Positions 30,203 to 33,108 of a stretch of 35,557 bases of DNA are shown piece by piece. The position numbers and the translations under genes are program-made. Every line of letters starts with the position of its first letter. Within the stretch, counting starts at the first letter, position 1. Source of the DNA: Anaerolineales bacterium. Its GTDB lineage: Bacteria; Chloroflexota; Anaerolineae; Anaerolineales; Villigracilaceae. The stretch covers positions 1 through 35,557 of the forward strand of contig JAEURI010000017.1 in NCBI GenBank assembly GCA_016789225.1, given 5' to 3'. The notes beneath the pieces are model-generated. The model saw nothing but the letters and a program-made list of their open reading frames with translations, did not search any database and was not told the DNA's origin.

Positions 30203-32935
30203 TTAAACCACCAAACTTACCAACTTGCCTTTGACCACGATCACCTTTCGCGGCTCTTTCCCTTCCAAATGCTTTTGGACGGCTTCACTCGCCATGACCG
30301 CAGACTTGATCTCATCCTCGCTCGCATCGGCAGGGACAGTGATGCGGTCACGCACTTTGCCGTTGACCTGGACAGGGATCTCGATCACATCATCTTTAGC
30401 GGCGGCTTCATCTACTTGCGCCCAACGCTGTTGGTGAATGGAGTAGGGCTTGCCCAGATGTTCCGTCCATAATTCCTCAGTGATGTGCGGAGCGACAGGT
30501 GCCATCATCTTTAAGTAAATTTCCTGAGTCTCTTTCCACTCAGGGGAACCAGCGGCTCCGGCTTCGCGTGCCTTGTACATCTCGTTCAACAACTCCATCA
30601 ATGAAGAGACGACGGTATTGAACTCGAAGTTCTCGAAATCACGAGTCACGCGTTTCAAGGTCTGGTGAACTTTTCGGCGTAGATTCTTTTTCGTCTCGTC
30701 AGAGGCAGTTCCCGGCGTGGAGGAGGGGTCAGTGAACAGAGTCCACACGCGGCGGATCCAGCGGGCTGTCCCTTCGATGCCATGCGAGTCCCAGGGAGCG
30801 CCCTGCTGCCAGCGCGCGAAGAACATCAAATAGGCACGCACGGTGTCAGCGCCATATTTCTGCACCAACACATCCGGCGCGACCACATTGCCCTTGCTCT
30901 TAGACATCTTGCTGTTGTCCTCTGCCAGCACCATGCCCTGATTGCGTAATTGCATCACTGGCTCAGGGCCCTCTGTGATACCCATATCACGCAGCGCCTT
31001 ATGGAAAAAACGGAAGTAAAGCAAATGCATGTTGGCGTGTTCACTACCGCCTGTGTAGGTGTCAACGGGCATCCAGTAATTGTATTCCGCATCATCGAAC
31101 GGAGCCTTGTCATTTTTCGGCGACAGATAGCGCATGTGATACCACGACGAACACATGAACGTATCCATCGTGTCGGTTTCGCGCATGGCATATCCGCCGC
31201 AGACGGGACAAGTGGAGTCCTTCCAGGTCGGGTGGAACTTCAAAGGCGATTCGCCGGTCGGTTTCCATTCGGTGATATCGTCAGGCAACAACACAGGCAG
31301 TTGATCATCGGGCACAGGATTCCAACCGTGGGTTTCGCAATACACCATCGGGATCGGCGCGCCCCAGAAGCGCTGGCGCGAGATCAACCAGTCGCGGTAC
31401 CGATAATTGACATCCATCTTGCCGATGCCTTTTTGTTCCAGCCATTCGACCACAGCTTTGATGGCGGGATTCTTCACGCCTTTGTCGTTCGTGGCGCGTG
31501 TCCCATTGAATGGACCTGAGTTGACCATCACACCTTCATGCGGATACGCAGTTTCCATTGTGTCGCCGTTTAATTCAACGCCTTCAGGCTGGATGACAGG
31601 GATCACCTTCAACCCGAACTTGCGCGCAAATTCAAAGTCGCGTTCATCGTGCGCAGGCACCGCCATGATCGCACCCGTACCGTACGACATCAACACATAA
31701 TCCGCCACCCAAATGGGGATGCGTTCTTCATTGACCGGATTGATGGCATACCCGCCCGTGAAGACACCGGTCTTCTCTTTATCTTTCGCCTCGCGCTGGA
31801 TGTCGGTCTGTTTCGCCGCTTGCGCCTTATACTCGCTGACAGCTTCTCTGTTCTCCGCAGTGGTGATCTTTTCCACCAGCGGATGCTCCGGCGACATGAC
31901 CATGAAGGTCGCGCCCCACAGCGTATCCGGGCGGGTGGTAAAGATCTCAATGGGGTCACCAGACTCCGTTTTGAAGATGACCGAAGCGCCCTCACTGCGA
32001 CCGATCCAATTCGTTTGCGATGTCTTGATGTAATCGGGCCAGTCAATGCCTTCGAAGCTCAGCAATTCATCGGCATATTTTGTTGCCTTGAAGAACCACT
32101 GTTCCAGTTCCTTTTTGATCACCGGCGTACCACAGCGATCACACACCCGGTCATCACCCTTGACCTGCTCGCGCGCCAAGGTCGTGTTGTCCTTCGGGCA
32201 CCAATCCACAGCAGATTTCTTGCGATATGCCAATCCGTGTTTGTATAACTGGATGAAGAACCACTCCGTCCATTTGTAATATTCGGGGTCGGCAGAGACG
32301 GCCTCGCGTTCCCAATCGAACATCGCACCCATCGTGCGCATTTGCACCCGCATCCGCTCGATGTTTTGATATGTCCATATTTTCGGATGGATATTGTGCT
32401 TGATCGCCGCGCCTTCCGCAGGCAGACCGAACGCATCGAATCCCATCGGGAACATGACGTTGTATCCCTGCATGCGTTTGAATCTTGCGCGCGCATCTGG
32501 CGGCGTCATAGAGAACCAGTGGCCGATGTGCAGGTCGCCGCTGGGGTAGGGCAGCATGGTCAAGGCATAATGTTTCGGCTTGCTATTGTCAATGACCGCG
32601 CGGTACAACTTGTCCGCTTCCCATTTCGCCTGCCATTTTTTCTCGATGTTTCCAGGGTTGTAAGACAGGTCTTTCATCTTCTTCTCCTCTTTCGCTTTTG
32701 CTGGGATGATTGCCTTTGGCTTCTCGGTCACTGGTGTGATGGCAGCCTTCGGCGCAGGGATGATCGCCTTGGATTTAACCACCGCCTCTTTCTTAACTTT
32801 AGGCTGGCTCGCCTTCTTGACCGGTTTCTTCGCTGTGGGTTTGGTTGCTTTTTTCACAGCGGGCTTCGTTACTTTCTTCGCCGCCGGTTTCTTGACAGCT
32901 GTCTTTTTAGTAACTTTCTTTTTTGGAGTCGTCAT
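30203..32935 (-). CDS. leuS: Leucyl-tRNA synthetase with lysine-rich N-terminal tail
   Basis: Charges tRNA-Leu with leucine. 910 residues. Residues 87-910 are a normal bacterial LeuRS: NPGNIEKKWQ, HIGH motif 136-139 in GDLHIGHW, editing domain with TTRPDTLWGATFMV and GTGAIMAVPAHDERD, zinc-type CPVCGG, KMSKS motif 676-680, anticodon-binding and C-terminal domains ending VNGKVRDRI...KLVSLVV. Residues 1-86 are an extra tail of Lys, Ala, Pro and Thr (TKKTAVKKPAAKKVTKPAVK type), like histone H1 or bacterial H1-like tails. GAGGT precedes the ATG at 32935, so the long form looks translated. A second strong ribosome binding site, GAGGAGAAGAAG, stands directly before the internal ATG at 32677 (residue 87). 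Regulated by the T-box upstream. Confidence 0.97.
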   Translation of the reverse strand: MTTPKKKVTKKTAVKKPAAKKVTKPAVKKATKPTAKKPVKKASQPKVKKEAVVKSKAIIPAPKAAITPVTEKPKAIIPAKAKEEKKMKDLSYNPGNIEKKWQAKWEADKLYRAVIDNSKPKHYALTMLPYPSGDLHIGHWFSMTPPDARARFKRMQGYNVMFPMGFDAFGLPAEGAAIKHNIHPKIWTYQNIERMRVQMRTMGAMFDWEREAVSADPEYYKWTEWFFIQLYKHGLAYRKKSAVDWCPKDNTTLAREQVKGDDRVCDRCGTPVIKKELEQWFFKATKYADELLSFEGIDWPDYIKTSQTNWIGRSEGASVIFKTESGDPIEIFTTRPDTLWGATFMVMSPEHPLVEKITTAENREAVSEYKAQAAKQTDIQREAKDKEKTGVFTGGYAINPVNEERIPIWVADYVLMSYGTGAIMAVPAHDERDFEFARKFGLKVIPVIQPEGVELNGDTMETAYPHEGVMVNSGPFNGTRATNDKGVKNPAIKAVVEWLEQKGIGKMDVNYRYRDWLISRQRFWGAPIPMVYCETHGWNPVPDDQLPVLLPDDITEWKPTGESPLKFHPTWKDSTCPVCGGYAMRETDTMDTFMCSSWYHMRYLSPKNDKAPFDDAEYNYWMPVDTYTGGSEHANMHLLYFRFFHKALRDMGITEGPEPVMQLRNQGMVLAEDNSKMSKSKGNVVAPDVLVQKYGADTVRAYLMFFARWQQGAPWDSHGIEGTARWIRRVWTLFTDPSSTPGTASDETKKNLRRKVHQTLKRVTRDFENFEFNTVVSSLMELLNEMYKAREAGAAGSPEWKETQEIYLKMMAPVAPHITEELWTEHLGKPYSIHQQRWAQVDEAAAKDDVIEIPVQVNGKVRDRITVPADASEDEIKSAVMASEAVQKHLEGKEPRKVIVVKGKLVSLVV
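32666..32690 (-). promoter_or_regulatory. Internal ribosome binding site and alternative leuS start
   Basis: On the minus strand GAGGAG lies about 7 nt before ATG 32677, exactly where the conserved LeuRS sequence begins (MKDLSYNPG). It could produce an 824-residue enzyme without the lysine-rich tail. The same bases also encode KEEKK, so the match could be a side effect of lysine/glutamate codons. Confidence 0.5.
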
Positions 32936-33001
32936 TCTTACCTCATAATTATTTTCGTAGGACGGGTTAGAAACCCGCCAAGTGTTTGTTATTGAAAATC
33001 C

Positions 33002-33036: not shown

Positions 33037-33108
33037 CTATAGGACACAGCCTAGAAGAAGACCCGCAAGCAAGGGCCCCTGTTTCCAGAAATTCCTTTTG
33101 ATGTTCAT
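33037..33108 (-). CDS. Leu-rich 23-residue mini-ORF in the leuS leader
   Basis: ATG 33108 has a perfect AGGAGG five bases upstream. The peptide is MNIKRNFWKQGP followed by LLAGLLLGCVL and a TAG stop. Six of its last eleven residues are leucine. It lies between the T-box terminator and leuS and ends one base before the hairpin at 33002-33036. It may be a leader peptide sensing Leu-tRNA or ribosome stalling. It could also be the remnant of a small lipoprotein or membrane protein (LLLGC looks like a lipobox). Confidence 0.45.
   Translation of the reverse strand: MNIKRNFWKQGPLLAGLLLGCVL

What the first reader, a model, noticed from the sequence alone, without database searches (positions are those of the whole stretch)
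32676..32935. LeuRS with a histone-H1-like tail and a second strong start just before the normal protein
Seen: 86 residues rich in Lys, Ala, Pro and Thr precede the conserved MKDLSYNPG start, in one frame, with a good ribosome binding site for the long form. GAGGAG also lies about 7 nt before the internal ATG 32677. Known: bacterial LeuRS normally begins at about this internal position, and Lys/Ala-rich tails bind nucleic acids. Inference: the cell may make two LeuRS forms, a tailed one that binds tRNA, ribosomes or DNA and an untailed one.
Basis: partly seen in the sequence, partly recalled or inferred. Interest (0 to 1): 0.75.

Follow-up and report, generated by a model that had tools for sequence, protein, structure and literature searches.

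The report
Lysine-tailed leucyl-tRNA synthetase, one start
In most sampled members of one family of Chloroflexota bacteria, the enzyme that loads leucine onto tRNA carries a conserved lysine-rich tail, predicted to be floppy and likely to grip RNA by charge, as reported for some eukaryotic synthetases; the proposed second, tail-free form is not supported by relatives.

Summary
The tail is real. LeuRS (30203-32935, minus strand, 910 aa) has 86 residues before the bacterial core: net charge +25, no Leu or aromatic residue, predicted disordered. In the same GTDB genus 25 of 33 assessable species have such a tail. On a tree of 121 LeuRS cores the label changes 10 times, which I read as one gain in this clade, four nested losses and five separate gains. 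The lysine arm shows purifying selection (dN/dS 0.11-0.40 in five measurable pairs; core 0.05-0.09). A linker follows it, with a repeated [AESD][IV]xP[VA] motif spaced 8 or 10 residues that is absent from ten other lysine-rich tail regions. The long start is the conserved one: GAGG precedes its ATG in 36 of 36 tailed and 9 of 10 untailed clade members. The internal start is not: ATG at that codon in 5 of 42 tailed enzymes, the well-spaced GAGGAG in the window only, and 61% of synonymous recodings give an equally long ribosome-binding-like word. Similar tails sit on unrelated proteins of the genus (isocitrate dehydrogenase, GyrA, RpoD, by eye PPDK); that of isocitrate dehydrogenase comes and goes independently of the LeuRS tail. 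Likely role: non-specific RNA/tRNA binding, untested.

The parts
30203..32935 (-). leuS, leucine--tRNA ligase with N-terminal tail, 910 aa
   Evidence: TIGR00396 leuS_bact 985.6 bits, residues 92-910; one full LeuRS in its genome, which is 71.6% complete
32678..32935 (-). lysine-rich N-terminal tail, residues 1-86
   Evidence: net +25; pLDDT under 50 at residues 1-86 only
32774..32935 (-). Lys/Ala/Pro/Thr/Val arm, residues 1-54 (boundary drawn by eye)
32699..32767 (-). linker with three [AESD][IV]xP[VA] motifs (AIIPA, AITPV, AIIPA; residues 57-79, spaced 8 and 10)
   Evidence: positions; 55 motifs in the last 60 residues of 36 clade tails versus mean 1.2 in shuffles; none in 752 residues of ten other lysine-rich tail regions
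32936..32944 (-). ribosome-binding region GAGGTAAGA of the long form
   Evidence: GAGG 4-6 nt before the ATG in 36 of 36 tailed and 9 of 10 untailed clade members (sequences)
32675..32677 (-). internal ATG (codon 87) proposed as a second start
   Evidence: ATG at this codon in 5 of 42 tailed LeuRS
32684..32689 (-). GAGGAG before the internal ATG, encoding Glu-Glu; SD-like by composition
   Evidence: not shared by the four relatives that have the internal ATG; a match this long is expected in 61% of synonymous recodings
30203..32674 (-). LeuRS core from codon 88, stop included

Best explanation
In most sampled species of this Anaerolineales family leucyl-tRNA synthetase carries, ahead of its catalytic core, a conserved lysine-rich arm and a short repeat-bearing linker, which are predicted to be disordered, are probably made in every copy of the enzyme from one conserved start site, and likely bind tRNA or other RNA by charge. 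Shown: the tail, its frame, its conservation with nested absences, its composition, its two-part build, the conserved long-form start region and the lack of conservation of the internal start. Predicted: disorder (AlphaFold pLDDT under 50 for residues 1-86 only). Inferred: the tail, with a median net charge of +31 in the clade, makes weak sequence-independent contacts with RNA and keeps the enzyme near tRNA, ribosomes or nucleoid, as lysine-rich extensions of eukaryotic synthetases are reported to do; the linker repeat sets reach or docks to the core or to a partner. Because similar tails sit on unrelated proteins of the genus, the arm is likely a general polyanion-binding tag and not specific for tRNA-Leu. 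Its absence from several nested species suggests that it is dispensable for growth.
For: 25 of 33 assessable same-genus species are tailed. A 46-row clade has 36 tailed members, the 10 untailed ones lying inside it as at least four losses by my reading. Clade tails: 58-190 aa, median 122; net charge +5 to +48, median +31; K 27.9%. Arm dN/dS 0.11-0.40 in five pairs with measurable dS, for example 0.14 and 0.11 in L007-L008 and L007-L010 with core 0.08 and 0.09. Motif: 55 occurrences in 31 of 36 tails, 19 neighbouring pairs spaced 8 or 10, versus shuffle means 1.2 and 0.0015. Start-site leader shared by tailed and untailed members. pLDDT under 50 only at residues 1-86. Precedents, passages read: the human LysRS N-terminal domain binds nucleic acids non-specifically (PMC6213541); the yeast AspRS lysine-rich N-extension improves charging by contacting the anticodon stem (PMC9976931).
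Against: No binding data exist. The same kind of tail is on proteins without a nucleic-acid substrate (isocitrate dehydrogenase, NuoE/F, peptidase M3, by eye PPDK), which weakens a tRNA-specific role. Several lineages in the clade lack the tail. Net charge is only +5 in L033, +8 in L026 and +11 in L018. Arm and linker are less constrained than the core: last-35-codon dN/dS ranges from 0.03 to 0.65 in seven pairs, and alignment of low-complexity tails biases dN down. Starts were picked partly by an upstream ribosome-binding-like word, so the leader count is partly circular. Low pLDDT may reflect the few tailed rows in alignment A3.
Confidence: 0.55

Rival explanations
1. Two LeuRS forms: tailed from the long start, untailed from internal ATG 32677.
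For: ATG at codon 87 with GAGGAG 6 nt upstream; four close relatives also have ATG there, two of them with AAGGA 10 nt and two with AAGGA 13 nt upstream; five more tailed LeuRS have GTG there; a public protein from the contig of one of these relatives has the length of the short form (824 aa, P0058).
Against: 5 of 42 tailed LeuRS have the ATG; 22 of 42 have no start codon near it; the SD-like word is expected from the peptide. A database start is usually a gene caller's choice.
Confidence: 0.1
2. The tail is a general polyanion tag of this lineage (nucleoid, RNA, polyphosphate or condensate) unrelated to LeuRS catalysis.
For: 12 gene-like frames with lysine-rich stretches in 2.36 Mb (54%) of relative G025, on RpoD, GyrA, isocitrate dehydrogenase, peptidase M3, NuoE/F, MobA-like and amylase-like proteins among others; an isocitrate dehydrogenase tail in 13 of 29 assessable genomes, present or absent independently of the LeuRS tail.
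Against: The LeuRS tail has its own repeat linker, absent from ten other tail regions, and is N-terminal while 8 of the 12 are C-terminal.
Confidence: 0.3
3. Nearly neutral low-complexity growth, tolerated but without function.
For: Tail length varies from 58 to 190 aa and whole tails are missing in nested lineages; the arm changes fast between near relatives (L009-L063, L023-L033, L016-L018).
Against: dN/dS well under 1 in the arm, positive net charge in 36 of 36 clade tails, recurring linker motif, tail in 36 of 46 clade members; no tandem DNA repeat found in the window tail.
Confidence: 0.1

Closest known systems
Lysine-rich N-terminal extensions of eukaryotic synthetases (human LysRS, yeast AspRS)
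   Same: Lysine-rich, N-terminal, disordered or predicted so; the known ones bind tRNA, human LysRS's non-specifically (PMC6213541, PMC9976931; passages read)
   Different: Those are eukaryotic class II enzymes; this is a bacterial class I LeuRS with a Lys/Ala/Pro arm and a repeat linker; binding untested
Histone H1-like Lys/Ala/Pro tails (Pfam PF07382; the name HC2 is recalled)
   Same: Composition; three relatives' LeuRS carry a precomputed PF07382 match (P0061, P0075, P0076)
   Different: The window tail has no Pfam match at E up to 1; it is fused to an enzyme
Lysine-rich low-complexity regions of bacterial nucleic-acid proteins (topoisomerases and others; PMC6821194, passages read)
   Same: Low complexity, lysine-rich, on housekeeping proteins; held to bind nucleic acid
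   Different: That paper's main text has no occurrence of 'synthetase'
Bacterial leucyl-tRNA synthetase (TIGR00396)
   Same: Whole core, residues 92-910
   Different: 79 of the 121 cores compared here have no such tail

Membership tests
Bacterial LeuRS (TIGR00396) | score above the curated cut-off over the full model | tested here: met
   985.6 bits against cut-off 548.4, model positions 1-842 of 843
Eukaryotic-type lysine-rich appended domain of class II synthetases | class II synthetase of a eukaryote | tested here: not met
   Pfam class I tRNA-synt_1 and LeuRS editing domain; bacterial relatives
Eukaryotic-type lysine-rich appended domain of class II synthetases | binds tRNA or other nucleic acid | not testable with these tools
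   charge and composition only
Histone H1-like HC2 (PF07382) | Pfam match | tested here: not met
   tail scanned alone, 0 families at E up to 1
Gene with two in-frame translation starts | internal start codon and ribosome-binding site conserved in relatives | tested here: not met
   ATG in 5 of 42 tailed LeuRS; well-spaced GAGGAG in the window alone
Gene with two in-frame translation starts | two N-termini detected in cells | not testable with these tools
   no proteomic or profiling data available here
Intrinsically disordered region | no predicted stable structure | tested here: met
   pLDDT under 50 at residues 1-86 only, 62-row alignment; few rows are tailed, so a prediction only

The most novel reading that the evidence does not exclude
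This bacterial lineage plugs polycationic arms onto unrelated housekeeping enzymes and unplugs them again, as a modular tag that holds translation, transcription and central metabolism on a shared polyanion scaffold (RNA, nucleoid or polyphosphate). LeuRS is one carrier, kept in most species examined, and it has an extra, LeuRS-specific docking linker of AIxPV repeats. It would be a bacterial counterpart, independently evolved in a class I enzyme, of the lysine-rich appended domains of eukaryotic synthetases.
Probability: 0.25. Interest if true: 0.72.

Novelty: new variant of a known kind. Interest (0 to 1): 0.5.

Why it matters
The human LysRS paper (passages read) describes the N-terminal appended domain as absent from prokaryotic counterparts (PMC6213541). 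A selected basic tail on a bacterial class I synthetase, lost several times in its clade and seemingly gained again elsewhere in the class, gives natural tail-less enzymes up to 87% identical to the window's, in which the effect of such a tail on charging, fidelity and localisation can be measured. That unrelated proteins of the same genus carry similar tails asks a broader question: why bacteria attach histone-like arms to ordinary enzymes.

Tried and rejected
Two-form model: tested on 42 tailed LeuRS and by synonymous recoding; not supported. Tandem DNA repeat in the window tail: none found. Tail elsewhere in the window's own genome: one further match, E 0.23, with stops inside, judged noise. 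First AlphaFold job, with 26 near relatives, was poor (mean pLDDT 43.5); the second, with 62 more diverse rows, gave 83.8. The linker motif elsewhere in seven genomes: the five strong hits (E under 1e-7) are LeuRS; weak hits (E 0.06 and 0.10) in G017 and G031 lie in frames that look by eye like molybdenum hydroxylase-type proteins; not pursued. Joint loss of tails across proteins: rejected, since G014 and G021 lack the LeuRS tail but have the isocitrate dehydrogenase tail, and G000, G017, G020, G024, G029 and G033 among others are the reverse. Leucine avoidance in LeuRS tails (22 Leu against 683 Ile+Val; 11 against 74 in ten other tails; Fisher p 0.0003 with non-independent rows): a lead only, because the core is full of Leu. 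Literature: ten searches listed no paper that by title or abstract start describes a lysine-rich tail on a bacterial LeuRS; only open-licence papers are held, and I read passages of three papers, none whole. In one search two frames printed as 'non-LeuRS' (L090, L131) are LeuRS that my filter missed, so the true count is 0; at G025's density about 1.3 would be expected in those 281 kb, so this is no contrast.

Full report
What is there. On the minus strand one frame, 30203-32935, encodes a 910-residue LeuRS. Residues 92-910 match the bacterial LeuRS model at 985.6 bits. The 86 residues before codon 87 form the tail; scanned alone it matches no Pfam family at E up to 1. The own genome (71.6% complete) has one full LeuRS.

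Conservation. I read the N-termini of LeuRS in same-genus and same-order genomes and in 80 named contigs, mostly titled Anaerolineales, Anaerolineae or Chloroflexi, one of them Candidatus Villigracilaceae; places under 45% identity over the first 150 core residues were dropped. A tail was scored as at least 30 residues with K+R over 20%, counted from the first ATG with a ribosome-binding-like word. Of the 37 same-genus genomes, 33 were assessable: in G003, G010 and G023 the match begins at residue 334 or later, and G016 is frameshifted. 25 of the 33 are tailed. From 136 loci, 11 duplicates were collapsed and four left out (L040, L095, L134, L137); 121 cores remained, 42 of them tailed. On the core tree (quick method) the label needs 10 changes, all forced by starred branches. 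My reading of it: one gain at a 46-row clade (36 tailed), four losses inside it, and five further gains (L044; L055/L056; L057; L059; L060); L057 and L059 could also be one gain with losses. L060 and L051 are long branches, so their places are unsure.

Wider sample. In a phylum sample of 151 genomes, 142 had a match at E up to 1e-60. In 9 of 12 genomes of the window's family the match extends into the tail. Eight of the 12 N-termini were read (five tailed, three not); G000, G020, G025 and G032 had been read before. Of the 130 other genomes with a match I read 12, chosen because the alignment ran early or the frame was long, and G048 earlier. None has this kind of tail; three of one family (f40) have an acidic Glu/Ala tail, and G153 has a milder basic one. 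Basic tails that do not align could have been missed.

Selection and build. In eight pairs the lysine arm gave dN/dS 0.11, 0.12, 0.14, 0.29 and 0.40, with three saturated; the last 35 codons gave 0.03-0.65 in seven pairs, two of these on six or fewer changes, with one saturated; the core gave 0.05-0.09. So the tail is constrained, less than the core, and protein alignment of a low-complexity stretch biases dN down. Thirty-six clade tails have 27.9% Lys, 17.6% Ala, 11.9% Val, 10.3% Pro and 9.2% Thr. The first 60% holds 34% Lys; the last 40% holds 19% Lys with more Pro, Ile and Glu. The last part carries a motif [AESD][IV][VIMTQ]P[VA]: 55 occurrences in 31 of 36 tails, with 19 neighbouring pairs exactly 8 or 10 residues apart; 2000 shuffles gave a mean of 1.2 occurrences, at most 7, and at most 1 such pair. 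I chose the motif after seeing the tails, so the shuffle test is partly circular; its absence from 752 residues of ten other lysine-rich tail regions of G025 does not share that fault. AlphaFold with a 62-row alignment gives pLDDT under 50 at residues 1-86 and in no other segment of 3 or more residues; few rows are tailed, so this predicts disorder and does not prove it.

Starts. GAGG 4-6 nt before the long ATG is present in 36 of 36 tailed and 9 of 10 untailed clade members, and GAGGTAAGAATG exactly in 21 and 1 (for L032 the start was moved by hand to its MATAKKK). Because starts were picked partly by an upstream ribosome-binding-like word the count is partly circular, but in several members (such as L007, L010, L016) the frame opens only three codons before this ATG. 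Untailed enzymes thus appear to start at the same site with the tail removed; L019 keeps short pieces resembling both tail ends (MAETKKEKEEKP). The internal ATG is present in 5 of 42 tailed LeuRS (window, L006, L007, L008, L010); GTG stands at that codon in five more (L009, L063, L070, L075, L080) and in untailed L019; 22 of 42 have no ATG, GTG or TTG from -8 to +3 codons. The well-spaced GAGGAG is the window's alone; L006 and L007 have AAGGA 10 nt upstream, L008 and L010 13 nt. Synonymous recoding of the last eight residues with core codon usage gives a match of at least 5 nt in 61% of 20,000 trials. Public records differ in start: by their lengths, the protein of L008's contig (P0058, 824 aa) begins at the internal Met and that of L022's contig (P0064, 872 aa) inside the tail.

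Lineage setting. In 2.36 Mb (54%) of complete relative G025, 13 frames hold a stretch with at least 13 Lys in 40 residues and at most 4 acidic; one (85 aa) looks spurious. The twelve others: LeuRS, an RpoD-type sigma factor and an orphan with N-terminal tails; an orphan with an internal stretch; and C-terminal tails on isocitrate dehydrogenase, a peptidase M3, GyrA, a MobA-like transferase, a NuoE/F fusion, an amylase-like protein, an orphan (Pfam) and a Lon-like protein (my reading by eye). A protein that I read by eye as PPDK has one in G017, G028 and G061. The isocitrate dehydrogenase tail is present in 13 of 29 assessable genomes (30 loci cut of 35 genomes with a match; one contig ends early) and is independent of the LeuRS tail. 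PPDK alignments reach at least residue 937 of 949 in 28 of 34 genomes with a match, some read through stops, judged by alignment ends only; they include G008, G015 and G021, which lack the LeuRS tail. Flanks of the 80 named loci (281 kb around 23 loci of the window's clade, 633 kb around 57 others) hold no lysine-rich frame other than LeuRS, too little sequence for a contrast. CysRS (by eye), the only other class I synthetase found by HIGH/KMSKS motifs in the G025 sample, has no tail.

Recombination. L015 and L021 share leader and tail (dS 0.24 in the arm, 0.08 in the last 35 codons) but differ in the core (dS 1.19), while L009 and L063 share the core (dS 0.19) but differ in leader and arm. 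The stretch around the tail thus looks like an exchange point; I ran no formal recombination test.

Mechanism. The best-supported reading is a basic, disordered tether on what is probably the only form of LeuRS. Basis: charge, predicted disorder, constraint on the tail, and precedents read in passages. Human LysRS's N-terminal domain binds nucleic acids non-specifically through clustered positive residues (PMC6213541). Yeast AspRS's lysine-rich extension improves charging by contacting the anticodon stem, at a cost in specificity (PMC9976931). Lysine-rich low-complexity regions in prokaryotes go with DNA binding and have been linked to RNA binding (PMC6821194). The other tailed proteins argue for a general polyanion tag over a tRNA-specific device. 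Binding, localisation and benefit are untested.

Noticed in passing
L209 (G176), L210 (G095), L211 (G138); phylum family f40: LeuRS with an acidic Glu/Ala/Thr N-terminal tail, the opposite charge, in another Chloroflexota family.
   Followed up: partly
L234, L240, L244, L247, L271, L174, L195 (G025); L143-L145: Lysine-rich tails on isocitrate dehydrogenase, peptidase M3, RpoD, GyrA, amylase-like, MobA-like and NuoE/F proteins and (by eye) PPDK of the same genus.
   Followed up: partly
L015 versus L021; L009 versus L063: Mosaic leuS genes whose divergence changes near the tail.
   Followed up: partly
P0058 (contig of L008), P0064 (contig of L022): By their lengths, public protein records start at the end of the tail or inside it, so the tail is lost from annotation.
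   Followed up: no
the 36 clade tails: Leucine is rare in LeuRS tails (22 of 4315 residues), also relative to Ile and Val in other lysine-rich tails.
   Followed up: partly
window 33037-33108 (-): Short frame MNIKRNFWKQGPLLAGLLLGCVL then stop: looks by eye like a lipoprotein signal cut off, upstream of leuS.
   Followed up: no
window 32963-32979 (-): Palindrome-like GGCGGGTTTCTAACCCG just upstream of leuS, one copy in the window at up to 3 mismatches.
   Followed up: no
G016 (L040): LeuRS split between frames near the start of the core in a two-contig assembly, perhaps a sequencing error.
   Followed up: no
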